Below are positions 16,409 to 55,241 of a stretch of DNA of 64,000 nt, one piece after another. Positions within the stretch are counted from its first letter, which is position 1, and every line of letters begins with the position of its first letter. The notes under the pieces were generated by a model, which was not told the DNA's origin, ran no database searches, and worked only from the letters and a program-made list of their open reading frames with translations. The translations under genes and the position numbers were made by a program. The DNA is from a virus: the IMG/VR virus record IMGVR_UViG_3300044974_001280, positions 1 to 64,000 of that record. One strand, given 5' to 3'.

Positions 16409-18202
16409 ATGAAAGAACAAGTAGTAGAAAGAGATTCAAATTATTGGAGTACTCAGAAAATTCAAGAACTACTCAGAAAAGGTGAGGAAGAAGGACTGGA
16501 TTATAAATCGGTTGACAACCCCTTTCACGAGGGTGAGACAGATCTTAAAAGAGCCAATCTGCTGTATGAATACACTCCAGAGGAAATAGTTGAAATTCAA
16601 AAGTGCGCCCAGGATTCTGTTTATTTTGCTAAATATTGTCAGGTCATGACTGACGACGGTCTCAGGAACATTGAATTGAGGGACTATCAGAAATCCATTT
16701 TAAGAGAGTATCAAAGACATCGTTTTTCAATTTTACTCGCACCACGTCAGATAGGTAAGAGCGTTACCAGTTCCATGATTTTAGTCTGGTATTTGCTCTT
16801 TAACCACGATAAAAACGCCATGATTTTGGCCAACGTGGGCTCGACTGCAGAAGAATTGATGGATAAAATTAAGGGCATAGTTAAAGGATTGCCTTGGTTT
16901 CTAAAACCGGGCATGGTTGTTAATAATGTCATGTCCATGAAATTCGACAATGGGTGCAGGGCTATAGCTAAAACAACCACTAAAACTTCTGCCATTGGAT
17001 TTACCATCCATTTTCTCTACATGGATGAGTTTGCCCACATTCACCCCAATTTCATTGAATCTTTCTTCAGATCGACCTACCCTACTGTTTCATCTTCTAA
17101 AGTCTCAAGAATTATTATTACTTCTACCCCTAATGGCATGAACAAATTCTATGATTTGTACCAAGGGGCTTTAACGGGGGAAAATTCCTTCAATCCTATA
17201 AGGGTTGATTGGTGGCAAGTACCCGGCAGGGATGAGGACTGGAAAAATCAAGAAATAGCCAATCTGGGCAGTGAAGAACTCTTCAACCAAGAATATGGCA
17301 ATCAATTTCTTAGCTCAACTACTCTTCTTCTCAGCTCGGCAGATTTAAGAAAAATGAAATCTAACGAGGCTGAATACACCTGGAGGGAAATAGATGCTTT
17401 GAGCGATCAGAAATTGAAATACCACAACTTCAGATGGCACCCTAAATTCCAGCTAGGAAGTGATTCTCTAGATGGAAAAAGCTTTGTTATTTCGGTCGAT
17501 TTGGCCTCGGGAAGCAGAGGTGACTACACTGTCGTCAACATCTTTAGGGTTGTACCTCTCCCCAAATCTTACATCGAAGAAATGTATGATTATAGCGATG
17601 AGGCTGATTTTTTCGGGCTTCTTCAGGTTGGCATCCTCAGAGACAATGAGATAGAGATAGAAGATTTTAAGAGAATGCTAGAGGCCTTAATTCTAAAGGT
17701 TTTCGACAGGGAAAGACTTACAGTTATCTTGGAAATGAATTTTAAAGGAGAATTGTTACTGGATAAACTCCTCCTTCACGATGACATTTCTCTGGATATA
17801 TTTTTACACACCAAACACACTGAATCTGCCAGAACTCCTAAGCCTGGTATTAAATACAATGAAAAAAACAAGCTCAAATACTGTGAAAGGTTGAGATACC
17901 TGGCCCGCAATAATAAAATCATCCTGAACGAAAAAAACTGGACCATCCCTGAAATGTTCTCTTTTGGTCTTAATACTACCGGTACTTATTCGAGCCAGTC
18001 AGGTCATGACGATGTGGCTATGTCGGTGGTAAATCTTTCGGGCCTGTTTGAAAGTACAGCTTTCCACGATTTAGTGGGTCAGATTTATGATGAGATAGAC
18101 GAAAATTACAAATCCCTAATCGACAAAAAACTCTCAGCCAAAATGGGGGAATTTGGAAGTAAGGAAAGCGATTTTTATTCTTCTTTCAGCAAGCTTCTTT
18201 AG
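16409..18202 (+). CDS. Terminase large subunit (gp17-like ATPase-nuclease)
   Basis: This 597-residue protein packages DNA through the portal. The ATPase domain has Walker A APRQIGKS at residues 111-118, Walker B FLYMDEFAH at 202-210 and coupling motif STPNG at 239-243. The C-terminal RNase H-like nuclease has VISVDLASGSRGDYTVV near 363-379 (first catalytic Asp), ILEMNFKGELLLDKL, and SGHDDVAMSV near 533-542 (late Asp pair). Length matches T4 gp17 (610). It partners with the small subunit upstream and docks on one of the two portal proteins encoded at 35507 and 37117. Confidence 0.95.
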   Translation: MKEQVVERDSNYWSTQKIQELLRKGEEEGLDYKSVDNPFHEGETDLKRANLLYEYTPEEIVEIQKCAQDSVYFAKYCQVMTDDGLRNIELRDYQKSILREYQRHRFSILLAPRQIGKSVTSSMILVWYLLFNHDKNAMILANVGSTAEELMDKIKGIVKGLPWFLKPGMVVNNVMSMKFDNGCRAIAKTTTKTSAIGFTIHFLYMDEFAHIHPNFIESFFRSTYPTVSSSKVSRIIITSTPNGMNKFYDLYQGALTGENSFNPIRVDWWQVPGRDEDWKNQEIANLGSEELFNQEYGNQFLSSTTLLLSSADLRKMKSNEAEYTWREIDALSDQKLKYHNFRWHPKFQLGSDSLDGKSFVISVDLASGSRGDYTVVNIFRVVPLPKSYIEEMYDYSDEADFFGLLQVGILRDNEIEIEDFKRMLEALILKVFDRERLTVILEMNFKGELLLDKLLLHDDISLDIFLHTKHTESARTPKPGIKYNEKNKLKYCERLRYLARNNKIILNEKNWTIPEMFSFGLNTTGTYSSQSGHDDVAMSVVNLSGLFESTAFHDLVGQIYDEIDENYKSLIDKKLSAKMGEFGSKESDFYSSFSKLL

Positions 18203-18235
18203 AATAAATAATTACAAAATTCCTGTTTTTTTGTG

Positions 18236-18243
18236 GATATATA
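18236..18243 (+). promoter_or_regulatory. Late promoter element (GATATATA) before the sheath gene
   Basis: This exact copy lies 26 bases before the ATG at 18270. GGATAT and ATATCC (18253-18258) form a 6-bp dyad overlapping it. Its position supports the 18270 start over the upstream extension. Confidence 0.7.
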
Positions 18244-18269
18244 AGCTGAAAAATATCCTCTGTAAAATA

Positions 18270-21200
18270 ATGGCAAAGAAAATAAAATTAGATCTCTCTC
18301 AATTCAAAGCTTCTGGTGTTTATACGCTGGAGTTTGATGCCTCCGAAAACGTCATTCTCACCTCCCAAACAATCAGGCTGGTGGTAGGATTTTCTAATAA
18401 AGGACCATTTAATGCTCCTGTTTACATTCCAGACATCACCACTGCTATAGCCATTTTTGGTGATATTGATAAGACTTTAGAAAGTCAAGGTTCTTATTTT
18501 CAAAGATCTATTTTTACTTGTCTGCAAACAGGTCCAGTTTTTGCCTTGAATCTATTAAAGCTAAACAATGATGAAGATAGTCCTACGGCAGATAAGGTAA
18601 ACTATTTTGGCTTTTCTGTTGCAACAGATGAACCTAATGGGGTTTTAACCTCTAGGCTCTATTCATCTTTCTACAATAAAGAAAGATTTTGGTACGCCGA
18701 TGTAGATTATTTCTTGGCAACAATGTCAATTCCTGATCAAGGTAGAATTTTTAATTTAGTGAATCTGGGTCAAGAGCCCATGAGCGTTATCGTCAGAAAA
18801 TCTACTGATGCTAACCCACCTTTACAAGGCTATGATGTTTTTGCCATCGATTGGTACGGAGCTGACAATGTTCCTAGCTACGTTCATCCTTATGACTACA
18901 TTTCAGATTGGTTCATAGATATTATTGCGGTGTCTGGTAACTGGACTGATTATGCATCTTTGTCACAAGACCCCGAATGGGCAGAATATTTTACTAGAAA
19001 TGGATTTGTTAAAAGTAAAATCAACCAATTCTTAAGCCAACAAAACGTTAATATCATTTCACAAACTACGGGCTGTTTGATCGTTGACTTTGTAGATCTG
19101 AATGGTAATAACCAATTCATCCAGACCCTAGTCAATAATAACACTCCTTCAACGGGTCTATTTTGTGCGGTTGACGCAGAAGCTTTGGATTATTTGTGTC
19201 AAAATAGGTTTAAAGTCGATTTAGTCGGTAATTTTTTAATTGATGAACTAACTGGTGACAGAGATCTTGAAGATCCAACTCTGAACTTTTTGAGCTACGA
19301 CCAGCAGCTCGTTCAAGATTACGTTTATACCCAAAATTACATAGGAATTACTGGTGCTGGTGGGGTAACAGGGGGAACAGCCGCTATTGCCTATTCGGGA
19401 TTGAACGTTGGTACTTTGCACAGAATAGATGGCGTAACAGGATCTTATGGTATTCCTGCCTCAGCTCTAGTTCCTTACAGTTCCACAGCTACTTTCGGGG
19501 GTCTACATTACGTTAGAACCAATTCGGGCGTGACGGGGGGTGCAGTTGTGAATGTTTATATTACCAACGGAGGTACCGGTTACACTAGTGCACCAACAGT
19601 CACTTTCTCTGGACCTGGAACTGGTGCTGCTGCCACTGCGGTCATAACTGGAGATGCGGTTTCTAGCATTACTTTAACAGCTAGCGGATCTGGATACACG
19701 TCCGCTCCTTCGGTCACTTTTTCGGGAGGCGGAGGCACGGGAGCGGCCGCTTCTGCAGATATCTTAACAGAACCTTCTTTGACCTCTGCTCAAAAAACTT
19801 TACTGAAAGATTTCTTGACCCCTTCTGCTACCAGTTCGCCTTTCATAGTAGGAACGGTCACTATTCCTGCGGGAGCATCGGGTAATGTCGTAAATCAGTT
19901 CTCTTCAGGGAATTTGGTTAAATTAAAAGTATCAGGTGTAGCTGAAACCTCTGGTGATTTAACTATCACCTTTACCCATCCATTGGACACCGGATTTTAT
20001 TCGGCTCAAGGAATTTCAGTTCAACCTACTTTCTTAACTGCCGGTATTACTGGAAGTTTTGTTAATGCCTTCTATCAGCAATTTGGAGCATCAGATTATT
20101 TAAATATAGATGCAATTGCTTCCGTCACAGGGGCAGCTCAAAGTAATACCCTCGTCGGACAAATTTCAACTAGTTTGTATCAAAATATTCAATACGATGA
20201 AATCCAAGACGGAGATACGGTTTGGTTGAACTCGGAGGGATCTTCTATTTACTACCTCGACACACAGTTAACTGTAGATAGAGATCAATACAACGTGGCT
20301 TACGTCAGGGCATTCGATAATATTGCCAGACAAAACCCTGACGATTTGGTGAATTATCCTCCCTTCGGTTCTGTTTATGCATCAGACAACATTGGAATTG
20401 GTGTTACTGCAGGTAAGACCGATATAGTTTCATCTGTTGCTTCCATAAATCAGTTTTTGGATGTAGTTCCTGGAGCTACAGGGTCCAGATCTAATCCCAA
20501 CACTTTTCTTTTTGCCCCAGATCAGGCGAACGATAAAATTATTTCAGTTGGAGATTTGCTGGTTTCTACTGATTTGGAACTCTGTGAAACTGTGGGGGCC
20601 AACCGACAGTCCAGACTAACCAAGGTCACTTCAGTGGCTCAGACGACAACTTCAGGGATAGTAAGAGTCACATGTTCCAGACCAATCTATTTCTATGCTG
20701 GAGACCCCGTCCAAGTACAAAAATTCAAATCGATCCCTCAATTTACTAGATCCTTCGATTTCATTTATTTACAGGGTTACACTATGAGAGATGCTCAGAG
20801 ACCTAACGGTTCTGATCTAAGGGTCAACGAAATTTTAGATGTCTTATACAACACGAACTTGGCTGCGACTCTTGCCACTAAAGACGTCATTTCATTCCGT
20901 TACATTGTCGATACCTTCAGCGGAACTATTCAGCCTAATTCTAAATTCCAGCTTTCAAAATTGGCAATGATGAGACAAAAAGCTTTGGCCTTCATCAATG
21001 CTCCTTCTATGGCTCAATTCAGAGCCAGTACGGATCCCAGATTTACTAATGCACCAACAGCAACAGATCCATTCCCTCCTTTGGAAGCCAGATATATCGC
21101 AGAGGGTGGAAATCTATCTTTAAATCCCTCCTACACCTTTAGCTTACCAACCCAAGATTTAGGAGCATCGTATGCTGCTTTCTACACTCCTTACATCACG

Positions 21201-21815
21201 GTCAGAGAGAACAACAGAAATCTAAACGTTCCTCCAGCTGCTTACGTTTCGAACAACTTTGTCCGGAAGTTTGCCAACGGAGAACCTTACAACATTATAG
21301 CTGGTCAGAAAAGAGGTACGATCTCAGGAGGTACTATCGTAGGAGTAGAATACGACTTCACCAACGACGATAGGGGCTGGCTAGAACCTTTCGGTCTCAA
21401 TCCAATCATCAAGAAGAGAGGATTCGGGGTCGTTATTTTCGGAAACCAAACCGCTTATCAGGTTGTAAATTCTGCATTTAATCTTGTGCACGTTCGGGAT
21501 TTACTGATCAGTCTTGAAAACGACGTCGAAGAAATTCTCTCTAATTATCTCTTTGACTTCAACGAGGACTCAATTCGTTTAGAGATCAAGACTATCGTTG
21601 ATACCTATTTGGATGGAGTGAGAGCAGGGGGTGGTATTTATGCCTACCAAGTTATTATGGATGCTTCCAATAATCCTCCTTCTATTATCGATCAGAACAT
21701 CGGTATCATCGATGTGATAATCGAGCCAGCAAGGGGTATTCAAAAATTCATTAACAGAATCACAGTCACCCGAACCGGAGGCATAGCTGCAGGAGGTTTC
21801 ATCAACTTTGTGTAA
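18270..21815 (+). CDS. Tail sheath protein (gp18-like) with repeat insertion
   Basis: This 1181-residue contractile sheath protein starts at the ATG at 18270, 26 bases after a late promoter; the longer frame upstream overlaps the terminase end and is not used. The N-terminus (SGVYTLEFDASENVILTSQ, then VVGFSNKGPFNAPVYI) and C-terminus (FINRITVTRTGGIAAGGFIN) are sheath-like, and the gene sits next to terminase and tail tube as in T4. It is much longer than T4 gp18 (659). Extra length includes residues ~430-500, where GYTSAPTVTFSG and a near copy repeat in a Gly/Thr/Ala-rich insert, probably a surface domain. Confidence 0.9.
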   Translation: MAKKIKLDLSQFKASGVYTLEFDASENVILTSQTIRLVVGFSNKGPFNAPVYIPDITTAIAIFGDIDKTLESQGSYFQRSIFTCLQTGPVFALNLLKLNNDEDSPTADKVNYFGFSVATDEPNGVLTSRLYSSFYNKERFWYADVDYFLATMSIPDQGRIFNLVNLGQEPMSVIVRKSTDANPPLQGYDVFAIDWYGADNVPSYVHPYDYISDWFIDIIAVSGNWTDYASLSQDPEWAEYFTRNGFVKSKINQFLSQQNVNIISQTTGCLIVDFVDLNGNNQFIQTLVNNNTPSTGLFCAVDAEALDYLCQNRFKVDLVGNFLIDELTGDRDLEDPTLNFLSYDQQLVQDYVYTQNYIGITGAGGVTGGTAAIAYSGLNVGTLHRIDGVTGSYGIPASALVPYSSTATFGGLHYVRTNSGVTGGAVVNVYITNGGTGYTSAPTVTFSGPGTGAAATAVITGDAVSSITLTASGSGYTSAPSVTFSGGGGTGAAASADILTEPSLTSAQKTLLKDFLTPSATSSPFIVGTVTIPAGASGNVVNQFSSGNLVKLKVSGVAETSGDLTITFTHPLDTGFYSAQGISVQPTFLTAGITGSFVNAFYQQFGASDYLNIDAIASVTGAAQSNTLVGQISTSLYQNIQYDEIQDGDTVWLNSEGSSIYYLDTQLTVDRDQYNVAYVRAFDNIARQNPDDLVNYPPFGSVYASDNIGIGVTAGKTDIVSSVASINQFLDVVPGATGSRSNPNTFLFAPDQANDKIISVGDLLVSTDLELCETVGANRQSRLTKVTSVAQTTTSGIVRVTCSRPIYFYAGDPVQVQKFKSIPQFTRSFDFIYLQGYTMRDAQRPNGSDLRVNEILDVLYNTNLAATLATKDVISFRYIVDTFSGTIQPNSKFQLSKLAMMRQKALAFINAPSMAQFRASTDPRFTNAPTATDPFPPLEARYIAEGGNLSLNPSYTFSLPTQDLGASYAAFYTPYITVRENNRNLNVPPAAYVSNNFVRKFANGEPYNIIAGQKRGTISGGTIVGVEYDFTNDDRGWLEPFGLNPIIKKRGFGVVIFGNQTAYQVVNSAFNLVHVRDLLISLENDVEEILSNYLFDFNEDSIRLEIKTIVDTYLDGVRAGGGIYAYQVIMDASNNPPSIIDQNIGIIDVIIEPARGIQKFINRITVTRTGGIAAGGFINFV
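19567..19760 (+). repeat. Tandem GYTSAP(T/S)VTFSG module inside the sheath gene
   Basis: Two tandem units of about 32 residues each contain GGTGYTSAPTVTFSG and SGSGYTSAPSVTFSG followed by GTGAAA. The units are coded by diverged DNA, so this is an old duplication of a beta-rich surface module. Confidence 0.75.
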
Positions 21816-21835: not shown

Positions 21836-22390
21836 ATGGCAGGTTTACCTCATTTTCAGAATTCTCTGTACTCTATTAACAAATACGAGCCAGTTTATCT
21901 CAACCAATTCGAAGTGGTTGTAATTCCTCCAGCAGCTGTGGCAGGGGGTCAGCTTCTTCTTGAACAAGTTATGAGCGTAACCGGAATGGACGTGGATAAA
22001 AACCCGTCCTTTGTTTTCCAGAAGTACAAGTTTGCCAAAAGAAACTATGCCGGTGGTAAGCCAGATAGTACCGTCTTCGATTTAGGCTTAAGATTCAATG
22101 TCAATTTGAACGATGACAATTCAATGTACACTTTCAAGACTTTAAGACAGTGGACCGATTTGATCTATAATCCTTTGACGGGAGCCATGGGCATTAAATT
22201 AGATTACACAGGCACTATCATCATTTCGATTTTTAATAAAAATGGTGATGTTTTCAGAAGGATTACCTGCCGAGATTGTTTTCCGCTCAAGGCAATCGAC
22301 CCCATGGAACTTGATTACACTAATGGCACAACCTTGTATGAAATCAACATGAATTGGGCAGTTGATTATTGGGAAGATCTTTTCCTCTAA
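21836..22390 (+). CDS. Tail tube protein (gp19-like), copy 1
   Basis: This 184-residue protein matches contractile-tail tube proteins: YEPVYLNQFEVVVIPP near residues 17-32, RQWTDLIYNPLTGAMG near 103-118 and SIFNKNGDVFRRITC near 129-143. It forms the inner tube within the sheath and lies straight after the sheath gene, as in T4. A late promoter element ends only 8 bases before the ATG, so transcripts from it would be almost leaderless. A paralogue follows 15 bases downstream. Confidence 0.9.
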   Translation: MAGLPHFQNSLYSINKYEPVYLNQFEVVVIPPAAVAGGQLLLEQVMSVTGMDVDKNPSFVFQKYKFAKRNYAGGKPDSTVFDLGLRFNVNLNDDNSMYTFKTLRQWTDLIYNPLTGAMGIKLDYTGTIIISIFNKNGDVFRRITCRDCFPLKAIDPMELDYTNGTTLYEINMNWAVDYWEDLFL

Positions 22391-22405: not shown

Positions 22406-22987
22406 ATGTCCGGTTTACCACATTTCAATAATTCACTAGCAGCCAGGAACAATTTCGAGCCAGTTTTCTTAAACCAGTTCGAAGTTATCATTACCCCACC
22501 TGCTGCCGTGACTTTAGCAAATGTCAGATTTAACGGGGAGTCTATCATGACACAGCAGGTAAAAAGTATTGGTGGGAGTTTAGCAGTAGACATCCAGCCA
22601 GCCGCGCCGGTGACTCAATACTACAAATTCGCCGAAAGAAGATATGCCGGCGGTGAACCGTCAACTTCGGACGTAGAGTTTACCGTTAATTTCGAGGTGA
22701 ATTTAGATGAGAACAACTCGATGACTATTTACAAAATCCTGCGCCAATGGTCCGATTTGATCTACAATCCTTTGACAGGTGCGATGGGCCTAAAAAGAGA
22801 TTACGTTGGTCAAATGATTGTTTCTATTTTTAACAAACAAGGGGATGTATTCCGACGTCTAACTTTTAATAACTGTTTTTTGGTCAATCCTCTAACTACT
22901 ATGGCCCTTAGCTACGAGACTGGTGACGGCCTTTACGAGCTTGAAACAACCTGGAAGTCTGACTATTGGCAAGATCAGTTTTTATAA
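22406..22987 (+). CDS. Tail tube protein (gp19-like), copy 2
   Basis: This 193-residue paralogue of the preceding tube protein shares LPHFxNSL at the N-terminus, EPVFLNQFEVIITPP, RQWSDLIYNPLTGAMG and SIFNKQGDVFRR. By eye roughly half of aligned positions are identical. The main difference is an extra loop near residues 32-58. The gene has no promoter of its own and follows after 15 bases. It may form a specialised end of the tube (tube initiator or terminator, like T4 gp54 or gp3 in role) or alternate with copy 1. Confidence 0.88.
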   Translation: MSGLPHFNNSLAARNNFEPVFLNQFEVIITPPAAVTLANVRFNGESIMTQQVKSIGGSLAVDIQPAAPVTQYYKFAERRYAGGEPSTSDVEFTVNFEVNLDENNSMTIYKILRQWSDLIYNPLTGAMGLKRDYVGQMIVSIFNKQGDVFRRLTFNNCFLVNPLTTMALSYETGDGLYELETTWKSDYWQDQFL

Positions 22988-31015: not shown

Positions 31016-31557
31016 TGGCAACTAGACCTATCCCTTGTCCTCCTGCAGTTCCTAATGGCTGGGTTTTTTTTAAGGACCAATTTGTGTTAGAACAAGACTA
31101 CCAATACACCACTTTTTTTAATTTCAAAGATTTGGCTTTTGGAGTTGTAGCATATTCCAGGCTTAGAATTAGTTTAAAAAGAGGCAGATCTGTTAAATTA
31201 AGTCAATCCAATATTGGAACTGAAGGTTTTGTTCGATGGATAGCAGTAAAAGTGCAGTATCCAGCTCCTAAGAATCCTATCCTTTATGCATCTCAAACCC
31301 CAATTATTCCAGGTGTTCCAACTCCTACCAATGGCACACCCCAAATTCAGAAATATATCACCTGGACCTATCAGGGTAGAACTTTAAATCTGGGAGATAT
31401 GATGGTGCTTACAGGTAATCCTTTAGGGTCGACTGATTCTGAAGTTACTGGTTGGAACCTGAGTGAGGATGATTTCCTATTTGCTGGAGGCGGAATTACT
31501 TTCACGAATCCTCATTCAGATTTTGATGTCAAACTAGAAATTTTAGTTGCAAAATGA
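31015..31557 (+). CDS. Virion-associated protein, paralogue of 30341 gene
   Basis: This 180-residue protein shares with its neighbour the C-terminal pattern DMMVLTG, GW, GGGITFTNPHSDFDVKLEIL, and differs in the N-terminal half (VPNGWVFFKDQFVLEQDYQY). Its ATG overlaps the upstream stop. A palindromic region with two late-promoter-like boxes follows its stop codon. Function is unknown; late expression suggests a virion role. Confidence 0.55.
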   Translation: MATRPIPCPPAVPNGWVFFKDQFVLEQDYQYTTFFNFKDLAFGVVAYSRLRISLKRGRSVKLSQSNIGTEGFVRWIAVKVQYPAPKNPILYASQTPIIPGVPTPTNGTPQIQKYITWTYQGRTLNLGDMMVLTGNPLGSTDSEVTGWNLSEDDFLFAGGGITFTNPHSDFDVKLEILVAK

Positions 31558-34563: not shown

Positions 34564-34923
34564 ATGTCGAAGATCTATGTAACTAATCAAAATCTGATGG
34601 AGGCAATTCTTGAATCTAAAGAGAAGGGAGAATTAACACCAGCAGCCATAGAAATGTTCACTCTGATGATCTCGGGCATTTCTAAAAAAATGTCTTATAA
34701 GGATCCTGATGATAAAGATGATTGTATGGCTTTTGCCATGGAGGATCTTTGCAAATATTGGAATAGATTCGACCCAGAAAAATCCAACAATCCTTTTTCC
34801 TATTACACCCAAATAGCCAAAAATGGGTTTGCAAAAGGCTGGAAAAAAATACATCCCCCCAAATCACCTAAGACTATTCCTTTTTCTCACATCACGGGAG
34901 AAGATAATTCTTATAATGTGTAA
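34564..34923 (+). CDS. Late promoter sigma factor, T4 gp55-like
   Basis: This 119-residue protein aligns in pattern with T4 gp55 over residues ~25-97: MFTLMISGISKKMSYKDP, DDCMAFAMEDLCKYWNRFDP and NPFSYYTQIAKNGFAKGWKK (the sigma region 2-like part that recognises the late TATAAATA box). It is shorter than T4 gp55 (185); the C-terminal sliding-clamp-binding segment of gp55 is not evident. The GATATATA elements before structural genes are its likely targets. It overlaps the gp4-like gene by one base. Confidence 0.75.
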   Translation: MSKIYVTNQNLMEAILESKEKGELTPAAIEMFTLMISGISKKMSYKDPDDKDDCMAFAMEDLCKYWNRFDPEKSNNPFSYYTQIAKNGFAKGWKKIHPPKSPKTIPFSHITGEDNSYNV

Positions 34924-35405
34924 TGACTGATATCAAAAAAATCAAGCCAAATGGCAATTTTAAATCTGGCGTATTTGCCCCTTTAAATCCAGAAAAATAC
35001 ATCGGAGATATCAATAACATCATTTGCAGATCAAGCTGGGAATACAGGTTCTGTAAATACTGTGATTCGAATCCACTGATTTTAAAATGGTCTTCTGAGC
35101 CCCTGCCAATTCCTTACTACAACCCTTTAGATCAGAAAGATCATAAATATCATGTTGACTTTTACATGAGGGTCCAGCAGGAAAACGGGGAACAGCAGGA
35201 ATGGCTTATCGAGGTAAAGCCCCAGAGACAGCACGAAAAACCAGTTTTCGAAGGAAGCAAAACCAACGAAAAATTGAAATCCTACAACGATAAGATGAAA
35301 GTCTGGATCACCAATCAGGCTAAATTTAAAGCGGCAAAAATCTGGGCAGAAGCGAGAGGAATGAAATTTGGAGTAGTAAACGAGAATTTCCTATTTAACA
35401 AGTAA
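34923..35405 (+). CDS. Head completion nuclease, T4 gp4-like
   Basis: This 160-residue protein has the gp4/gp50 pattern: SGVFAPLNPEKYIGD near 15-29, IICRSSWEYRFCKYCDSNP near 33-51, VDFYMRV near 77-83 and EWLIEVKPQRQHEKP near 92-106. This is a TnsA/PD-(D/E)XK-like core with Glu-39, Asp-78 and Glu-x-Lys near 96-98. T4 gp4 finishes filled heads before tail attachment. It is translationally coupled to the gp55-like gene. Confidence 0.8.
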   Translation: MTDIKKIKPNGNFKSGVFAPLNPEKYIGDINNIICRSSWEYRFCKYCDSNPLILKWSSEPLPIPYYNPLDQKDHKYHVDFYMRVQQENGEQQEWLIEVKPQRQHEKPVFEGSKTNEKLKSYNDKMKVWITNQAKFKAAKIWAEARGMKFGVVNENFLFNK

Positions 35406-35440
35406 AAAATACCGACTGGAAAAAGCAATATCATCCAACG

Positions 35441-35448
35441 GATATATA
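35441..35448 (+). promoter_or_regulatory. Late promoter element (GATATATA) before the portal genes
   Basis: This exact copy lies 58 bases before the ATG at 35507. ACCGAC (35411-35416) and GTCGGT (35476-35481) flank it as a GC-rich inverted repeat. A rare strong Shine-Dalgarno follows at about 35488-35496. Confidence 0.65.
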
Positions 35449-35506
35449 CTTGCTGTAAATCGAAATAAAATTCACGTCGGTGGTAAAAAGGAGGAATAGT
35501 TTCTAA

Positions 35507-37111
35507 ATGGCAGGTTTTAGCGAGAATCCAAACACCAATCCAATCTTTCAGAAGATTAGGGATTCGGTTAAAAATCTGAGTAATTTCGGGATCCGATATG
35601 GTGACATGGTTGTCAAAAATTCTCAGGCTATTGGGGCCACTGAAGCTGAATTTTTGAAAAAAGGACCTATTGAGGATGAAACCACCTTCTTTTCTTTAGG
35701 TCGCCAAGACACAACCACCAGGCAGTATATTTCTTATTTTGATAAAGACTATGCGGGAAAAAGAGATTATCTGAGAAAATTCTCTTTGAACCCTGAGATA
35801 GAATACATTTTAGACACTGTCTGTGATGAATCTATTACTTACGATTCTTATAATTTCTTTGCCTATCCAGCTTTTCTGAACCTATCTAATCTTAAAAAGT
35901 CCGTTATCGATCGCATCGATTCGACTTATAAGAAACTGTATGACATGTTCGGTTTCAACGATGACATTTCGGCCTGGCAGTATTTCAGGCAAATGCTGGT
36001 GGATGGATTTATTGCCTTTGAGATTGTCTTTGATGATAGCGGCAGAAACATCATCGGATTTAAAGAGCTAGATGCCACGACCCTCATGCCTTCTGTGGAA
36101 AAACAGAAAGACGGAACTTTTTTGAATGTTTGGTATCAATACCCTAAAGATGAAAGAAAAAGAAGAATGTTGTACGACTCTCAGGTCATCTACATTTCTT
36201 ACGCCAAAGGCAATTCTATTTCTAGAGTTAGCTACACAGAAAGACTGATTAGACCTTACAATGTCTTGAGAATTATCGAATACACCAGAGTTATTTGGTC
36301 GGTCATGAATGCTTCTTTTAGGATGAAGATGACCATTCCGGTGGGATCTAGATCCCAACAGAAAGCAATGCAAACTCTGGGAGAATTGATGTCTATCTAC
36401 AAAGAGGACATCCAGTTTAACGACGAGAGTGGAGAACTTTCTGTTAACGGCCAACCCAAGATTCAGTTCTATAAGAACTATCTAATGCCCAAAGGAGCAG
36501 GAGGCACCCCTTCTATTGAGCCTCTAAACACGGCAGGCCCCAATCTGAATGATCCTGCCCCATTAGCCTATTTTTTCGATAAATTAGTGCAGGAATCAAA
36601 AATTCCTTTTTCCCGGTTTCAGGGGCCTGATGGCGGATCTATTGGAAAATACGCTAATGCTGCCGAAGGTTTAGATAAAGAAGAAATCAGATTCTCTAAA
36701 TTTATTATGAGGCTTAGATCTGTATTTCAGGATATCCTGGTTAAGCCTCTATGGATTCAAATCTGTAAAGATTTTCCCCAACTAGAAAAGGATTACACTT
36801 TTAAATCCCAATTAGGTCTAAGCTATGTTTCAGATAACCCCTTCCGGGTTAACCAGGAGATTGAAACCATTACGAAGAGAAAAGAATTTATAGATTCTCT
36901 TTATACCCTCACCGACGAGGAAGGAAATCCTTTCTTTTCTATCTCATATCTAGTGGAAAACTACATGGGTCTTACTGAGGATGATATAGCTTCTAATAAA
37001 AAAGCCAGAAGTGATAACAAATTAAAATCTGCTGAAGAAGCTGCGGCTGCCAGCGCATCTCCGCCAGCGGGCGAGTCCGAGCCAGAAGTAGCACCAGAAA
37101 CCCCAGTATAA
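35507..37111 (+). CDS. Portal protein (gp20-like), copy 1
   Basis: This 534-residue protein matches T4-like portals in length and motifs: MVVKNSQAIGATEAEF near 34-49, SLNPEIEYILDTVCDE near 94-109, GFKELDATTLMP near 184-195, SYAKGNSISRVSYTERLIRP near 236-255, and MRLRSVFQDILVKPLWIQIC near 401-420. The ring forms the head vertex and DNA channel. It has a late promoter 58 bases upstream and one of the few strong Shine-Dalgarno sequences here (aaaggaggaata). A second portal gene follows after 5 bases. Confidence 0.92.
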   Translation: MAGFSENPNTNPIFQKIRDSVKNLSNFGIRYGDMVVKNSQAIGATEAEFLKKGPIEDETTFFSLGRQDTTTRQYISYFDKDYAGKRDYLRKFSLNPEIEYILDTVCDESITYDSYNFFAYPAFLNLSNLKKSVIDRIDSTYKKLYDMFGFNDDISAWQYFRQMLVDGFIAFEIVFDDSGRNIIGFKELDATTLMPSVEKQKDGTFLNVWYQYPKDERKRRMLYDSQVIYISYAKGNSISRVSYTERLIRPYNVLRIIEYTRVIWSVMNASFRMKMTIPVGSRSQQKAMQTLGELMSIYKEDIQFNDESGELSVNGQPKIQFYKNYLMPKGAGGTPSIEPLNTAGPNLNDPAPLAYFFDKLVQESKIPFSRFQGPDGGSIGKYANAAEGLDKEEIRFSKFIMRLRSVFQDILVKPLWIQICKDFPQLEKDYTFKSQLGLSYVSDNPFRVNQEIETITKRKEFIDSLYTLTDEEGNPFFSISYLVENYMGLTEDDIASNKKARSDNKLKSAEEAAAASASPPAGESEPEVAPETPV

Positions 37112-37116
37112 TAGAC

Positions 37117-38742
37117 ATGGCAGGATTTTTAGATAATGCTCAGGAAAAATCTTTTTTGGGGGTTCTGTACAGAAACCTCGGAAAGATTAGTAAATTCGGG
37201 ATGCAATATGAAGATATGGTTATCCGTAATTCTCAGGCCATTGGTGCTACCGAATCGACCTTTTTTAACAATCAAGGCACTGGTTTTACCGAAAATGATG
37301 CCTTTTTCTGGACTTTAGGTTACCAGGATACCAGAATCAGAAAATACATCGCCTATTTTGATAAGGATTATCTTGGTAAAAGAGAATTCCTTCGCAAATT
37401 TGCTCTCAACGGAGAAATAGATTTCATTCTAGACACCGTTACTGATGATGCGATAAACTACGATGACAAGAATTTTTTCTGCTACCCCAGTTTGGTGAAT
37501 ATTGAGCTGAAAGACAACGTCAGGGAGAGAGTGGAAGAAAATTTTAGAACCTTATATAATCTTTTTGGCTTTCAACAAAGCATTCTGGCTTGGCAGTACT
37601 TCAAGCAGTTTTTGGTTGATGGTTTTTTGGCTTTTGAGATTGTTTATTCTACAGATGGCAAGAAAATAGTTGGATTCAAAGAACTAGACGCCACCTCACT
37701 TCAGCCGGCCACTGAAAAACAGCCCAACGGGGAATTCCAACAAATTTGGATCCAATATCCTCAGGACAACCGAATGACCAGAAAGCTGAAATCGGAACAG
37801 GTTATTTACTTGTCTTACGCCAAGGGCAATGCTGTCTCCAGAGTTAGCTACACAGAAAGGCTCATTCGTTCCTATAACATTTTAAGGGTGATGGAAAATA
37901 CGAGAGTTATTTGGAATGTCATGAATGCATCCTATCGACTGAAGTTCATTATCCCTGTTGGTACTCAATCCATGCAAAAAGGCATGCAGACTCTTGGTCA
38001 ATTGATGTCCCAGTACAAGGAGGAGATCCAGATCAACGACACTTCGGGGGAACTAACGGTCAATGGTGCACCCAGAGTCCAGTTTTATAAAAACTATCTG
38101 TTCCCTGAGAAGGACGGCGAATCTCCTGATATTAGCACACTCAACCCCAGCGGACCGGATTTTAACGTGATGGAAAATGTTGTTTATTTTTACAACAAAT
38201 TGAAGTTGGATTCTAAAATCCCTTACGCCAGGTTTTCAGCCAGATCCGGAACCCCTGCTAATTATCAGATTAGCATAGATCAGTTGGAGAGGGACGAAAT
38301 TCGATATGAAAAATTTGTAACTCGTCTGAGATCTGTTTTCCAGGAGATCCTAGTTAAACCTCTTTATATCCAAATGTGTCTAGATTTTCCTGTTTTGTCA
38401 AAGGATCGTACTTTTAAGGTAAATTTGGGTTTAGATTATGTGAAGGAAAATGTCTTCGAACAAATGATTCAGTTGTCCAACTATTCCAAGAGAGCATCTT
38501 TTATTTCCAGCATGGGTGAGATAAAAATGAAAGTGGGGGAAGAGGAATTACCCTATTTTGACAAAGAATGGCTTATCAAAAGATGGCTGGGTCTTAGTAT
38601 GGATGAATACAGGATGAACGAAAAGTACAAGAAGGAAGAGAAGGAAGAAGCAGATAAATTAAAGAAAGATCAAGAGAAAGAAGGAGAGAAGAAAGGAGAA
38701 GGGGGAGAGGGACAAGCAGAAACACCTAGTTTTACCCTATAA
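37117..38742 (+). CDS. Portal protein (gp20-like), copy 2
   Basis: This 541-residue full-length paralogue of copy 1 has RNSQAIGATESTFF near 38-51, GFKELDATSLQP, SYAKGNAVSRVSYTERLIRS, and TRLRSVFQEILVKPLYIQMC. The fold-defining regions are collinear throughout and neither copy shows frameshifts or missing blocks, so both are likely functional. The C-terminal 40 residues are a Lys/Glu/Gly-rich tail (EKEGEKKGEGGEGQ) unlike copy 1's Ala/Pro tail. It starts 5 bases after copy 1, so the two are co-expressed. Confidence 0.92.
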   Translation: MAGFLDNAQEKSFLGVLYRNLGKISKFGMQYEDMVIRNSQAIGATESTFFNNQGTGFTENDAFFWTLGYQDTRIRKYIAYFDKDYLGKREFLRKFALNGEIDFILDTVTDDAINYDDKNFFCYPSLVNIELKDNVRERVEENFRTLYNLFGFQQSILAWQYFKQFLVDGFLAFEIVYSTDGKKIVGFKELDATSLQPATEKQPNGEFQQIWIQYPQDNRMTRKLKSEQVIYLSYAKGNAVSRVSYTERLIRSYNILRVMENTRVIWNVMNASYRLKFIIPVGTQSMQKGMQTLGQLMSQYKEEIQINDTSGELTVNGAPRVQFYKNYLFPEKDGESPDISTLNPSGPDFNVMENVVYFYNKLKLDSKIPYARFSARSGTPANYQISIDQLERDEIRYEKFVTRLRSVFQEILVKPLYIQMCLDFPVLSKDRTFKVNLGLDYVKENVFEQMIQLSNYSKRASFISSMGEIKMKVGEEELPYFDKEWLIKRWLGLSMDEYRMNEKYKKEEKEEADKLKKDQEKEGEKKGEGGEGQAETPSFTL

Positions 38743-38752
38743 ATTTCAATGA

Positions 38753-39751
38753 ATGAATTTACTAAAATTATTTTCCACCCAAAGGATCTTGGTGGTTGGA
38801 GATTCGATTCTAGATCACTATGTCTATGGTAAAGTTCACCGGGTTTCCCCTGAGGCACCAGTCCCGGTTGTTCTCAAGAACAGAGAAGAGTATTTTCTAG
38901 GAGGAGCGGCAAACGTGGCTCAGAACATCACCGCCTTCGGAGCTAAGTGTACCCTGTTGTCCTTGATAGGGCCCGACGTCGAAAGCAAAATTCTTTTGCA
39001 AAAATGCCTGGATGAAAACATCGAGCCTCTTTTTATTGAAGAAAGAGGAAGACCGACAACCAAAAAAACAAGAGTTTTAGGCAATAGACATCAGATTGTT
39101 AGAATCGATGTGGAAGAATCCAGAGATTTATCTTTGGGCTCCAGTTTAAAAATCATGAAAATTTTCGAAGAACAAATTCAATCCCACGATGGGGTCATTT
39201 TCCAAGATTACGGTAAAGGACTATTTACAAATTCCCTTCTGAATCAGCTTGTTCAGATTTGTCAAAAACACGACAAAAAGATTCTGGTGGATCCTAAAGA
39301 GCCAGATCTTTTTCGCTACCAAGGTGCCTGTTTTATCAAGCCCAATCTGGCAGAGTTCAAAGCCATGTTAAAACTAAAGACCGAGGATGAATTAGAAATC
39401 CATCAAATCTCTGATTATGCCCAACGAGCCCTGGAAGAATTTGATTATAATTTCTTTTTGATCACTCTGTCTGAACGGGGTATTTTATTAGTGGGCAGAG
39501 ACTTTTCCCGACATCTCCCAGGTATCAATGTGGATGTCTCGGATGTGTCAGGAGCAGGAGACACAGTTTCTGCTGTTTTTGGTTTGGGTTTTTTCTCTAG
39601 CCTTAAAAATCCAAAGCCTGGACTGGAGCTACACCACATAGCCGAACTGTCCAATTTGGCTGGATCTCTGGTGTGCAGACACTCTGGAGCGGTTCCTGTT
39701 GATCCTGAAGAATTACAAAAATTATTTGAAAAAAGTTCGTTTTTTTCCTGA
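38753..39751 (+). CDS. hldE: D-glycero-beta-D-manno-heptose-7-phosphate kinase (RfaE1/HldE N-domain)
   Basis: This 332-residue PfkB-family kinase has ILVVGDSILDHYVYGKVHRV near 12-31 and SPEAPVPVV near 32-40, the family-defining start of RfaE/HldE. GGAANVAQNI and the catalytic DVSGAGDTVSAVFGLG near 262-277 complete it. Length covers the kinase domain only; the C-terminal adenylyltransferase half of HldE is absent. It phosphorylates heptose 7-phosphate on the route to ADP-heptose. It sits after the portal genes, far from the glycan island, but fits the two heptosyltransferase-like genes there. Confidence 0.88.
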   Translation: MNLLKLFSTQRILVVGDSILDHYVYGKVHRVSPEAPVPVVLKNREEYFLGGAANVAQNITAFGAKCTLLSLIGPDVESKILLQKCLDENIEPLFIEERGRPTTKKTRVLGNRHQIVRIDVEESRDLSLGSSLKIMKIFEEQIQSHDGVIFQDYGKGLFTNSLLNQLVQICQKHDKKILVDPKEPDLFRYQGACFIKPNLAEFKAMLKLKTEDELEIHQISDYAQRALEEFDYNFFLITLSERGILLVGRDFSRHLPGINVDVSDVSGAGDTVSAVFGLGFFSSLKNPKPGLELHHIAELSNLAGSLVCRHSGAVPVDPEELQKLFEKSSFFS

Positions 39752-51462: not shown

Positions 51463-53493
51463 ATGAGTCTAGGTCCTTTTGGAGAAGATATGGTTTTCAT
51501 TCTGGAAAAACAGAATCACCATGTTAATGTTTCGAAACAGAAAGTAGATGGGGACAATGTTTACACATTGAAAGGAATTGCTGCTCAATTTGGTAAAGAA
51601 AACAACAACAATAGAATCTACGAAGAAGCAGAATATCTACCCCATCTTGACTACTTGAACGAGAAAATCAAACAAAAAAGATTGGTTGGTGAACTAGATC
51701 ACCCCGAGAAATTTGATGTCTCTCTCAGAAACATTTCACACATCATCGAAAATCTCGAGTATGATAAAAACGGTCGGGTACTGAACATTAAAGTCAAGTT
51801 GCTTGATACTCCCGCAGGTCAGATTGCCAAGAAGCTGGTTGATGCCGGTGTTCCTCTTTCTATTTCTTCAAGAGCTGCTGGTAATGTGGGTCCGGATAAA
51901 AAGGTTCAGATCAAAAAGATCTTCACTTACGACCTAGTCGCAGATCCTGGTTTTCAAGACGCCCAATTAGAAAGAGTCTATGAAAGCGCGGGCTTTTCTT
52001 TTTCGGAATTCGCCGACAAGACTAAAAATTCCATTGTGAGCCATTTAGAGTGTATCAATGAATCTTTGGGTCTAAAAAATAACGATTCAGTAAAGATATA
52101 TAGAGTCGAAAATAACGAAGAATTCGAAAAAATATTCACAACAGAAAAAAATAACATCGATATTATGGAGTCACAAAAAAGAGAATTCGTTACGGCCGAA
52201 GAGCTCAACAAATATTCTATTTTTCTGAAAAAGAAAATGGAGGAAATGGAAATGCAAATTCAGGAGATGAAGAGCAGTTCACCACAGTCAAGCAATGCAT
52301 CTGAAAATGCTCAGCTGTTGGAGAGAATTGACCGTCTAGAAGAATATTCCGAATATCTAGCCGAAAATTTAGAGGATGCTATCAAATACGGCGAATATTT
52401 GGCTGAAAATTTGGACGACTCCATCAATTACAGCAAGTATCTGGCCGAGAGCCTGGATAAATCGATCTCTTACTCGAAGTATTTGGCCGAGAATGTAGAC
52501 AACTCTATTTCTTATTCAGAATACGTAGCAGAGAATGTGGATAGAACCATCAACTACTCGAAATATTTGGCAGAAAAGATCGACGATGGTATTCAGTACA
52601 GCGAGTATGTGGCTGAAAACCTAGGTAACAGTATTGCCTACTCTGAATATCTGGCCGAAAACGTCGACAGAGGAATTGCCTACTCTGAATATCTGGCCGA
52701 GAAGGTTGATAGGAACATTTCGTACTCTGAATATCTGGCCGAGTATATCGATAAAGACATCGCCTACTCTGAATATCTAGGAGAAAAAATAGATCAAGGT
52801 ATTTCTTACTCTGAATATCTGGCTGAAAAACTAGATCAGGGTATCTCTTATTCGGAATATCTGGCTGAAAATGTGAACAGGACTATCTCTTACTCTGAAT
52901 ACATTGCAGAAAAATTAAACGGCACAATTGAATTTGGTGAGGCACTATCAGAAAAAGTTGGTTATCCAACCCATCTGAATTCCAGAGCCAGATCAGAAGC
53001 AAATCTTGCCGCTAAAACTGAATTATTTGAATCAGGATTTGCCGGGGATTATAATAACCTCGGAAGTCAAATCGATTCATTAATCGAATCGGTCCAAACC
53101 CAAAAGACCGAATTAACCCGGGCCCAACTGGTTGGAAGGCCCTCTGCCCACACTCCAAAGGCAGAAGAGATGCTCAACGAGAATCAATCAGCCACCATTT
53201 CCTCCTCAGGTCATAAATTTATCGACGAAATGCCGGAAAATTATGCTCCAATTTGGGAATCTCTCAACGAAGGACAGAAGCAATCTATTATTGCTCAGTC
53301 CGCTTTCTATCGATTGGAGACACCTTATCAGATCAACAATTTCTGGTCTACTCGTAACTTGAGGAAAGAAACGGTGACTATGCAGAGACTCGATGAGAAT
53401 CAACAAACCCATGCTCTTCCCCAGTCGACGACTCGTGCTTATGGAAGTGATTACCTAAACTGGGTAGCTCAATCACTGGAGAAAAGATTCTAA
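51463..53493 (+). CDS. Prohead protease (gp21-like) fused to repeat-based scaffold
   Basis: This is a 676-residue protein. Residues ~30-165 are a gp21/S78-type prohead protease: GIAAQFGKENNNNRIYEEAE, VGELDHPEKF (catalytic His) and PLSISSRAAGNV (catalytic Ser). A coiled-coil linker follows. From residue 295 to 490 there are fourteen 14-residue repeats, consensus YSEYLAENVDxGIS, with a decayed fifteenth. The C-terminal ~150 residues are conserved-looking (SGHKFIDEMPENYAPIWESL). Each repeat has an (L/I/V)-x-E triad, the T4 prohead protease cleavage type. T4 encodes protease and scaffold (gp22) separately. The capsid gene follows after 26 bases. Confidence 0.85.
   Translation: MSLGPFGEDMVFILEKQNHHVNVSKQKVDGDNVYTLKGIAAQFGKENNNNRIYEEAEYLPHLDYLNEKIKQKRLVGELDHPEKFDVSLRNISHIIENLEYDKNGRVLNIKVKLLDTPAGQIAKKLVDAGVPLSISSRAAGNVGPDKKVQIKKIFTYDLVADPGFQDAQLERVYESAGFSFSEFADKTKNSIVSHLECINESLGLKNNDSVKIYRVENNEEFEKIFTTEKNNIDIMESQKREFVTAEELNKYSIFLKKKMEEMEMQIQEMKSSSPQSSNASENAQLLERIDRLEEYSEYLAENLEDAIKYGEYLAENLDDSINYSKYLAESLDKSISYSKYLAENVDNSISYSEYVAENVDRTINYSKYLAEKIDDGIQYSEYVAENLGNSIAYSEYLAENVDRGIAYSEYLAEKVDRNISYSEYLAEYIDKDIAYSEYLGEKIDQGISYSEYLAEKLDQGISYSEYLAENVNRTISYSEYIAEKLNGTIEFGEALSEKVGYPTHLNSRARSEANLAAKTELFESGFAGDYNNLGSQIDSLIESVQTQKTELTRAQLVGRPSAHTPKAEEMLNENQSATISSSGHKFIDEMPENYAPIWESLNEGQKQSIIAQSAFYRLETPYQINNFWSTRNLRKETVTMQRLDENQQTHALPQSTTRAYGSDYLNWVAQSLEKRF
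52095..52102 (+). promoter_or_regulatory. Internal late-promoter-like GATATATA inside the protease-scaffold gene
   Basis: This exact copy of the late element lies 62 bases before an in-frame ATG at 52165 (residue 235, MESQKREFVTAEELNKY). That position follows the protease domain and precedes the coiled coil and repeats. It could drive a scaffold-only product of about 442 residues. Chance occurrence in AT-rich coding DNA is possible. Confidence 0.45.
52345..52932 (+). repeat. Fourteen tandem 42-bp (14-residue) scaffold repeats
   Basis: The units encode YSEYLAExxDxxIx. Fourteen residues equals two heptads, consistent with a continuous helical or coiled-coil rod. DNA identity between units is moderate, highest in units 7-13 (gaatatctggccga recurs). 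Confidence 0.95.
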
Positions 53494-53519: not shown

Positions 53520-55241
53520 ATGAAACTAATTAACGAAGCCGAGATTTTTGATACCTGGGCACCTATTATTGAACAAAAAGCTGGTATCACTGATCCCTCA
53601 AAACAAACTTGGTTGGCAAAATATTGCCACTACCACTCCCTCAACGAGTCTGCCGGTGCATATCAGTCGTTGAATGTCGTCAACGGTATGGGTGCCGTTA
53701 CACCTCCTACCTTCCCAGCAGCAACAGCAGCCGGTTCTCTTGGCGGTCTAACTCCTAACCAAGGATTCTACAGCCAGTCTTGGCAAGGATCTGGCGATAA
53801 GTTCCCTTCACTTCTTCCTTTGGCTATTCAGGTAGCTGCGAAGACTGTAGGTTTCGACATCGTTCCAGTTATTCCAATGTCCGGTCCTTCTGGCGTTTTG
53901 TCCTACCTTGACTATGTGTATGCCGGTGGTAAGATCAGCCCGCAAAACGCCGGAACTACAGCTGCCGAGGCTTTGGCAAATGCTCCTACAATGATCAAAT
54001 TGCAAATCACTACCCAGACGAACATGTCTTTACTAGAGGTAGGACCAAATACACCAGGTACAGATTATTACATCTCCAACGCCAGTGCTTCAGCTACTGA
54101 ATACATCACTGCTAGGTTTGTAGGCTACTCTAGAATTGATGGATTTCCAATTTTTGAAATCACAGCAATGACCGCAGGTGAAACTGTTGCCTCCGTTCTT
54201 AGCGGAGGTGCTTTCATTGGTACTACAATTGCCGGAGATGAAGTTGGTAGTACCACAGCTACTGCTTCTCTGGTTAAGGCTCTAGAGGATCACATTCAGG
54301 GTTTCTCTGGTGCAGGTTTTTATGACGATCAGAATTGGCAAGGTCCCTTCACCGATGGCACACAGACTTACAATCCGATGCTAAGAAGTGTAGGTGAAGA
54401 AAACTACTACAATTTGATGGGTCTAACGACTTTCACTAAGTTCGTAGAAGCCGACACCTTCCAGGTAGCCGCTTCCGTTACCACGGAGCAAATCCAGGAT
54501 CTCAACAAGCAATTCGGAATCGATGTTATCTCAATGATCGAAAACGCATTGGTGAATGAGGTTTCTCAGGCTATCAACAAGCACATCTTGTCAAGGGCAT
54601 TTGCTTTAGGATGGTCTAACACCTATGCTTTCTTCCAAACAGAAGCACAGAATTTGAACTTGAGCCTAGTATTGGGTGGTGCAACAGGAACTACCCTTGC
54701 CTATGTTACTAAAACTGACGGAACCCAATCAATGTCTATCCCAGCCGGGCCTGCTAATGGAGGTTACGAGAATTTGTCAACTCTACAGAGAAGGCTTTTC
54801 TCCCGGATCTTGGCAGCTGCCAACATGGTAGCTAACAGAGGTAGAAGAGGTCCTGCTAACTTCATTGTTACCAACGCTAATTTGGCTTCGGCAATGCAGG
54901 ACATCAGCCAATTCACTTTCGCTCCTTTCACTAACACCTTGACTCAGAACAATGGTACTCTGTATCCAGTAGGTTCTTTGGCAGGTATGACTGTCTACGT
55001 CGATCAAAACATGAGATTCTCCGATAACCGTATCCTAGTCGGTAGAAAAGGTGGAGACGACGAGCCAGGTCTAAAATTCATGCCTTACATGATGGCTGAA
55101 TCTATCCAGACTATCTCCGAGGGAACTATGTCTCCTAAAATCGCGGTCAAGTCTCGTTACGCTCTAGTAGAAGCTGGTTTCCACCCAGAAACCATGTATG
55201 CTACTTTCTTCGTACAAGTTCCGGTTGGAGGTATCAACTAA
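53520..55241 (+). CDS. Major capsid protein (gp23-like)
   Basis: This 573-residue protein matches T4-like gp23. The N-terminal arm MKLINEAEIFDTWAPIIEQ resembles the T4 gp23 start, and GDKFPSLLPLAIQVAAKTVG then FDIVPVIPMSGPSG open the HK97-type core. The C-terminal ALVEAGFHPETMYATFFVQV is also typical. A likely maturation site is HSLNE/SAGAY after residue 43 (L-x-E type), comparable to T4 cleavage after residue 65. Codon use and richer GC near the middle are as expected for a highly expressed gene. A strong terminator follows. Confidence 0.95.
   Translation: MKLINEAEIFDTWAPIIEQKAGITDPSKQTWLAKYCHYHSLNESAGAYQSLNVVNGMGAVTPPTFPAATAAGSLGGLTPNQGFYSQSWQGSGDKFPSLLPLAIQVAAKTVGFDIVPVIPMSGPSGVLSYLDYVYAGGKISPQNAGTTAAEALANAPTMIKLQITTQTNMSLLEVGPNTPGTDYYISNASASATEYITARFVGYSRIDGFPIFEITAMTAGETVASVLSGGAFIGTTIAGDEVGSTTATASLVKALEDHIQGFSGAGFYDDQNWQGPFTDGTQTYNPMLRSVGEENYYNLMGLTTFTKFVEADTFQVAASVTTEQIQDLNKQFGIDVISMIENALVNEVSQAINKHILSRAFALGWSNTYAFFQTEAQNLNLSLVLGGATGTTLAYVTKTDGTQSMSIPAGPANGGYENLSTLQRRLFSRILAAANMVANRGRRGPANFIVTNANLASAMQDISQFTFAPFTNTLTQNNGTLYPVGSLAGMTVYVDQNMRFSDNRILVGRKGGDDEPGLKFMPYMMAESIQTISEGTMSPKIAVKSRYALVEAGFHPETMYATFFVQVPVGGIN

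What the first reader, a model, noticed from the sequence alone, without database searches (positions are those of the whole stretch)
35507..38742. Two complete portal genes in tandem
Both copies are full length, collinear and retain all recognisable portal motifs, but have different C-terminal tails. A portal is a single ring at one vertex, so two genes imply a hetero-oligomeric ring, alternative portals, or a specialised second vertex. I am not aware of this in well-studied T4-like phages.
Basis: partly seen in the sequence, partly recalled or inferred. Interest (0 to 1): 0.75.

Follow-up and report, generated by a model that had tools for sequence, protein, structure and literature searches.

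The report
Paired portal and tail-tube genes
A large group of uncultured phages carries two different copies of the gene for the ring through which DNA enters and leaves the head, and also two copies of the gene for what is probably the tail tube, which suggests that their DNA channel is built from two kinds of subunit instead of one.

Summary
Window 35507-37111 (A) and 37117-38742 (B) are two intact T4-type portal genes in tandem (52% identical; both over the PF07230 cut-off). This is an old, fixed trait and not a quirk of one assembly. In related viral contigs the A-then-B pair was found in 230 of 250 loci examined. All other loci are contig ends (10), one broken copy (4) or a single-portal sister clade (6). 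A wider sample of that sister clade is single (84 of 85 loci; the 85th is one broken gene). The trees place one duplication after the split from the sister clade, with both copies under similar, strong purifying selection. These are the only two close paralogue pairs among 60 window genes. Two tube genes go with two portals (26 of 26 genomes covering the locus), and one with one (17 of 17). A and B differ most in DNA-contact loops; the tunnel loop is more basic in B in 92 of 92 pairs. My best explanation is a heteromeric DNA conduit: an A/B portal ring, probably (AB)6, and a mixed tube. Stoichiometry and co-assembly are inferred. I found no report of this.

The parts
35507..37111 (+). portal gene A (534 aa), T4 gp20 family
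   Evidence: PF07230 E 3.2e-62; phrog_213 portal; T4 gp20 chains by phmmer and Foldseek E 1.9e-17
37117..38742 (+). portal gene B (541 aa), T4 gp20 family, 5 nt after A
   Evidence: PF07230 E 3.3e-60; phrog_213; T4 gp20 chains by phmmer and Foldseek E 1.2e-17
21836..22390 (+). probable tail-tube gene T1 (184 aa), directly after the sheath gene
   Evidence: phrog_45 tail tube E 1.7e-12; weak match to T4 gp54 E 0.002; no PF06841 match
22406..22987 (+). probable tail-tube gene T2 (193 aa), 52% identical to T1
   Evidence: phrog_45 tail tube E 1.1e-9; BLASTP to T1
18153..21815 (+). tail sheath gene (single), neighbour of the tube pair
   Evidence: phrog_34521 tail sheath E 2e-120
34564..34923 (+). 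late sigma factor gene (gp55-like), conserved neighbour of the portal locus
   Evidence: phrog_234; same place in sister clade
34923..35405 (+). head completion/closure gene (gp4-like), conserved neighbour
   Evidence: phrog_218; same place in sister clade
51463..53493 (+). head maturation protease gene (single); in the single-portal sister clade it follows the portal directly
   Evidence: phrog_207
53520..55241 (+). major capsid gene (single)
   Evidence: PF07068 one match in the 230,445-base record

Best explanation
A single ancestor of this phage group tandemly duplicated two genes whose products line the DNA path: the portal (a ring of 12 at the head vertex in T4) and the probable tail tube (stacked rings of 6 in T4, recalled). 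Both copies of each have been kept ever since. The most likely mechanism is that A and B are co-translated from adjacent cistrons and assemble together in one heteromeric portal ring, most simply six alternating A/B pairs. T1 and T2 would likewise build a mixed tube. Alternation turns a 12-fold ring into a true 6-fold one, matching the tail, and lets two different sets of DNA-contacting loops (basic tunnel loops from B, near-neutral or acidic ones from A) face the DNA. Shown: two intact, anciently duplicated, co-conserved, divergently specialised portals; the parallel tube pair; the map positions. Inferred: co-assembly, alternation, 6:6 ratio, and that T1/T2 are the main tail-tube proteins.
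For: Obligate pairing: 230 of 250 viral loci are A-then-B; the rest are 10 contig ends, 4 with one broken copy, 6 single-portal sister loci. The genes lie -1 to 23 nt apart in 91 distinct pairs, compatible with coupled, near-equal translation. Old and symmetric: A clade 100/99, B clade 97/91, A+B 100/99 against single-copy portals; identity to the single-copy sister is equal for both (0.432/0.438 and 0.433/0.447), dN/dS medians 0.041 and 0.048. Same event class in the tube: only the portal and tube pairs show up in an all-against-all BLAST of 60 window genes, both 52%; two tubes in 26 of 26 dual-portal genomes covering the locus, one in 17 of 17 single-portal records with a tube. Same orthologous sites, one gene in the sister and two here. 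A/B differences concentrate in loops that touch DNA in T4 (mean separation 0.293 vs 0.139); tunnel-loop charge A below B in 92 of 92 pairs, sister portals like A. Sun et al. 2015 (PMC4493910, read in part) infer that T4 tunnel loops contact those of neighbouring subunits and help set the 12-mer.
Against: No structural, proteomic or interaction data were found for any member. The stem helix stays alike (0.776 A-B identity) but this would hold for two homomeric rings too. The clip, which carries the main-chain inter-subunit contacts in T4, is not enriched for A/B-specific columns (10 of 60 top columns, 9.3 expected). Reciprocal loss of residues conserved in single-copy portals is symmetric but small: 3 sites lost only in A, 2 only in B, of 205. 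The link of portal and tube doubling is phylogenetically one coincidence on one branch, however many genomes carry it. The tunnel-charge contrast was picked after looking at nine segments.
Confidence: 0.55

Rival explanations
1. One paralogue remains the portal and the other has become something else that keeps the portal fold: an assembly initiator, a second stacked ring, a plug or a neck/core piece. The tube pair would then be tube plus baseplate-proximal or terminal ring.
For: Paralogues of tube proteins that form only the first layer are known in contractile injection systems (recalled, not from a call). T1 has a weak match to T4 gp54, the baseplate-tube junction protein (E 0.002). A PTm1 homologue is annotated 'baseplate subunit'.
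Against: Both portals keep all domains, equal rates and equal distance to single-copy portals; a repurposed copy would be expected to diverge asymmetrically. Both keep the stem and clip needed for the DNA channel.
Confidence: 0.22
2. Two separate homomeric portals: alternative rings for two virion forms, or a second specialised vertex on one capsid.
For: Two complete genes; the tube is doubled too, so two complete conduits (A with T1, B with T2) could exist. B's tunnel loop is more basic in 92 of 92 pairs.
Against: The copies sit -1 to 23 nt apart in one transcription direction, so they are probably made together and, at about 50% identity, would have to avoid mixing. One major capsid gene in the record; one large terminase and one sheath gene were seen in the window.
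Confidence: 0.15
3. Redundant duplicate kept for dose or by neutral drift, with no distinct role.
For: Both copies keep the family fold and many conserved columns (91 of 205 columns conserved in single-copy portals are kept in both).
Against: The pair has survived across contigs whose A proteins are only about 53-57% identical, with no intact single-copy reversion seen. Fixed differences at channel positions: at T4 T349, A has Pro in 92 of 92 and B Thr, Val or Ser; at T4 N358, A has Asp in 91 of 92 and B Val or Ile in 92 of 92.
Confidence: 0.04
4. Assembly artefact or pseudogene pair.
For: Two contigs carry one broken copy: an in-frame stop in A (L071/L151) and a split B (L123/L226).
Against: 91 distinct intact DNA pairs among fetched viral contigs; dN/dS near 0.04-0.05 for both.
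Confidence: 0.01

Closest known systems
T4 gp20 portal (PF07230, homododecamer; PDB 3ja7, 6uzc, 9mkb)
   Same: Fold and domain order by sequence and Foldseek
   Different: One gene and one homomeric ring in T4; here two paralogues per genome, diverged at the DNA-contact loops
Portal of the single-portal sister clade (LR756500, 462 kb; L113-L118; L423-L501)
   Same: Same locus (sigma - gp4-like - portal), about 42-47% identity to A and B in the comparisons made
   Different: One portal (84 of 85 loci; the other is one broken gene) and one tube gene
T4 gp19 / gp54 tube-fold proteins
   Same: Gene directly after the sheath, as gp19 in T4; short single-domain size; phrog_45 tail tube
   Different: Two tandem copies; PF06841 does not match; the only solved-structure hit at E 0.01 is weak and to gp54
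Homomeric rings that became heteromeric after duplication (V-ATPase proteolipid ring, proteasome, CCT; recalled; general survey of fates in PMC7480870, outline and abstract seen)
   Same: Ring protein duplicated and both copies kept
   Different: Those are cellular; here co-assembly is not shown, and two ring proteins of one conduit were doubled

Membership tests
T4-like portal (PF07230) | Whole-protein score over the curated cut-off, most of the model covered | tested here: met
   A 211.1 bits, B 204.5 bits, cut-off 22.9; model 7-430 and 9-433 of 433
T4-like portal (PF07230) | Portal fold (wing, stem, clip, tunnel loop, crown) | tested here: met
   Foldseek best hits are T4 gp20 for both, but models are low confidence (mean pLDDT 59.0 and 59.4); domain map by alignment
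T4-like portal (PF07230) | Dodecameric ring at one vertex | not testable with these tools
   needs purified protein or virions
Heteromeric ring by gene duplication | Both paralogues conserved together with matched histories | tested here: met
Heteromeric ring by gene duplication | Both paralogues in one complex | not testable with these tools
   no virion data
Heteromeric ring by gene duplication | Paralogue-specific changes enriched at subunit interfaces | tested here: inconclusive
   enriched in tunnel loop and in the DNA-contact loops taken together; not in the clip as a whole; no interface map available
T4 gp19 tail tube (PF06841) | Match to the Pfam family | tested here: not met
   no match for T1 or T2; none in the 230,445-base record at E 0.1, whereas T4 gives two
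Tail tube (PHROG 45) by PHROGs and position | Profile match and place directly after the sheath gene | tested here: met

The most novel reading that the evidence does not exclude
These phages have a heteromeric DNA conduit: an alternating A/B portal ring joined to a tail tube also built from two kinds of subunit, fixed in one ancestor and kept across a diverse group. This would be the first natural hetero-oligomeric portal that I know of.
Probability: 0.5. Interest if true: 0.87.

Novelty: new variant of a known kind. Interest (0 to 1): 0.74.

Why it matters
Portals are treated as homomeric 12-mers in a 5-fold vertex. A natural two-subunit portal would give a ring with real 6-fold or lower symmetry and two distinguishable sets of DNA-contact loops, so the roles of individual loops and the symmetry mismatch could be tested by changing one subunit type at a time. 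The parallel doubling of the tube gene offers a case of two successive rings of one machine gaining complexity in the same lineage, with a single-copy sister clade as the natural control.

Tried and rejected
Assembly artefact or pseudogene: rejected. Duplication limited to this window: rejected. Joint duplication of one tube-portal block: not supported; tube and portal lie about 12.5 kb apart here, about 44 kb apart in LR756500 and not adjacent in the single-portal contig G008. Third portal or second major capsid gene in the record: none found. Late promoter (TATAAATA) before A but not B: no signal, 1 and 0 of 90. A host link through bacterial genomes: 32 stretches matched a pattern in genome contigs but none encoded a relative. 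Predicted models of A and B were of low confidence, so no structural mapping was based on them. The idea of many reciprocal residue losses did not hold up: only 3 and 2 sites of 205. The neighbour after the tube (23074-24156) showed no similarity to the ORF after the tube in L299 or L422 but did to ORFs downstream of the tube in L502 and L505.

Full report
In the window, A (35507-37111) and B (37117-38742) are intact T4-type portal genes in tandem, 5 nt apart, 52% identical over 503 residues. Both exceed the Portal_T4 cut-off many times over and both find T4 gp20 in the PDB by sequence. AlphaFold2 models of both are of low confidence (mean pLDDT 59.0 and 59.4), but their best Foldseek hits are T4 gp20 chains. 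The record is a virus contig of 230,445 bases with exactly these two portal matches and one major capsid match.

The pair is a fixed trait of a large group. I scanned IMG/VR with B, with A, and with two alignments and with the single portal of LR756500. Of 250 loci classified (contigs may repeat among loci), 230 have A then B, 3 have B only, 7 have A only, 2 have a split A, 2 have a split B, and 6 have a single portal of the sister clade. All ten one-copy loci end within or close to the missing gene (coordinates). The split A (L071/L151, in-frame stop) and split B (L123/L226) are one contig each. There are 190 complete pairs, 91 of them distinct in DNA, from 1 overlapping base to 23 nt between the genes. 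Divergent members have A proteins only 53-57% identical to the window's and still keep both genes.

The single-portal relatives are the control. A scan ranked by likeness to the sister clade gave loci L423-L501; with L113-L118 these make 85, of which 84 have one portal ORF and one, L487, has its single portal split near the C-terminus. In 54 of the 85 there is room for a second gene on both sides. In named phage records, 2072 match B and 1163 match A; only LR756501 and LR756503 list two places (the listings show the best rows, and the totals are two places above the number of records). The second place in LR756501 is a 58-position fragment; LR756503 was not examined separately, but has the same length and coordinates. 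This tblastn survey could miss a very divergent second portal.

Trees agree on one duplication. With 42 A/B rows and 19 single-copy rows, A is one clade (100/99), B is one clade (97/91), and A+B is separated from all single-copy portals (100/99). Earlier trees gave A 100/99 and B 100/100 for 33 close pairs, and A 99 with B unresolved for 42 pairs in a quick search. Some outgroup branches are long. The copies evolve alike: mean identity to LR756500 is 0.432 for A and 0.438 for B, to L115 0.433 and 0.447; pairwise identities of A and B across genomes correlate at 0.986; NG86 dN/dS medians are 0.041 (25 comparisons) and 0.048 (41), with synonymous sites close to saturation (median dS about 1.8), so the ratio is rough.

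The tube gene is doubled too. An all-against-all comparison of 60 window genes gave only two BLAST-level paralogue pairs: 21836-22390 with 22406-22987 (52.3%) and A with B (52.5%); phmmer added one weak pair, 55360-56052 with 56104-57048. The small pair matches PHROG 45 'tail tube' and lies directly after the sheath gene, as gp19 does in T4. It does not match PF06841, and T1's only solved-structure match at E 0.01 is T4 gp54 (E 0.002), so I call it a probable tail tube. In dual-portal genomes: the window's record has two, of 10 dual-portal contigs, 9 have two and one (G012) is cut at the tube, of 20 contigs, 16 have two (in G015 the first is cut to 14 codons) and 4 have none because the contig ends before the locus (judged). 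That is 26 of 26 genomes that reach both genes. In single-portal records: 7 of 8 and 10 of 18 have one tube, none has two, and the rest have no match (G014 was in both calls). Named phages: 31 records, 31 places. A scan for T1 gave 80 loci, 78 with both genes and 2 ending within or just after T1. The 41 distinct pairs (from these and the genome-search loci) lie 10-18 nt apart. The tube tree has the same shape as the portal tree: single-copy rows on one side (94/88), T1 one clade with modest support (82/68; 88/88 in the smaller tree), T2 unresolved.

The loci are orthologous. In the sister clade the order is late sigma, gp4-like, a 190-residue protein, portal, protease, major capsid. In the dual group it is late sigma, gp4-like, (190-200-residue protein), portal A, portal B, then ligase and clamp-loader genes, with a kinase gene first in the window and L017. 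Sheath, tube, a 155-residue protein, then a homologue of 23074-24156 in the sister corresponds to sheath, T1, T2, 23074-24156 here.

What differs between A and B? I mapped both onto T4 gp20 domains from Sun et al. 2015 (PMC4493910; outline, the first part of Results and the DNA section read). Stem helix 1 is most alike; tunnel loop, crown and stem 2 least. Columns that separate A from B score higher in the three DNA-contact loops named in that paper than elsewhere (0.293 against 0.139; Mann-Whitney p 2.8e-5; 9 of 521 circular shifts reach the value). The channel loop on its own is not significant (p 0.16) and the clip domain as a whole is not enriched. Tunnel-loop net charge is lower in A than B in 92 of 92 pairs: A -2 to +1, B +2 or +3, and 82 single-copy portals -1 to +1. 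At the T4 T349 position A has Pro in 92 of 92, B has Thr in 71 of 92, single-copy Thr in 78 of 82; at T4 N358, A has Asp in 91 of 92, B Val or Ile in 92 of 92, single-copy Asp in 82 of 82. Yet a full count of columns conserved in single-copy portals finds few one-sided losses: 3 in A only, 2 in B only, 27 in both, 91 kept in both, of 205. These patterns come from one ancestral event and the tunnel charge was singled out among nine segments, so they describe the divergence and do not prove its cause.

Mechanism. Symmetric retention, tight spacing and no intact single-copy reversion favour the two proteins working together in one structure over separate uses. In T4 the authors infer that tunnel loops contact those of neighbouring subunits and help to set the 12-mer, so a fixed charge difference between A and B loops is what an alternating ring could use. 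A mixed tube from T1 and T2 would be the same change one step further down the channel. Steps shown: intact pairs, one old duplication each, co-occurrence, constraint, loop divergence. Steps inferred: co-assembly, alternation, stoichiometry, tube identity, and any causal link between the two duplications, which is one coincidence on one branch.

Literature. Ten full-text searches were made; nine sought portal or tube duplication and one the general heteromeric-ring theme. From the listings and the passages opened none describes two portal genes in one phage; the library holds open-licence papers only. PMC12619734 (passages and one section read) lists a portal family in 25 genomes of a lineage of large aquatic phages without mention of copies; whether that lineage includes this group was not tested. 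[quoted passage not shown]

Noticed in passing
window 38753-39751: A kinase gene close to D-glycero-beta-D-manno-heptose-7-phosphate kinase (TIGR02198 303 bits, below its cut-off of 345; PfkB E 1.2e-30) follows portal B directly.
   Followed up: partly
window 30341-31015 and 31015-31557: Two adjacent small proteins of unknown family share a weakly similar C-terminal part (24% over 168 residues, E 3e-4 for the single comparison).
   Followed up: partly
window 55360-56052 and 56104-57048: A third, weak tandem paralogue pair just after the major capsid gene (phmmer E 3.2e-6); no Pfam or PHROG match.
   Followed up: no
window 35405-35507: A 190-200-residue gene lies between the gp4-like gene and the portal in L017, L156, L203 and sister-clade loci but is missing here, where only about 100 bases separate them.
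   Followed up: no
L071/L151 and L123/L226: One contig has an in-frame stop at codon 201 of A, another a split B; either sequencing errors or real broken copies.
   Followed up: no
L088 (MK250023, Lak-B4): The portal reads through 9 TAG codons, as expected for a phage that recodes TAG.
   Followed up: no
LR756501, 15166-15351 -: A 58-position fragment matching the C-terminal part of the portal family, far from the full portal gene.
   Followed up: no
window 18153-21815: The sheath gene encodes 1220 residues; only the last ~400 match sheath families, with a stretch around 449-593 matching domains of other virion and tail proteins.
   Followed up: no
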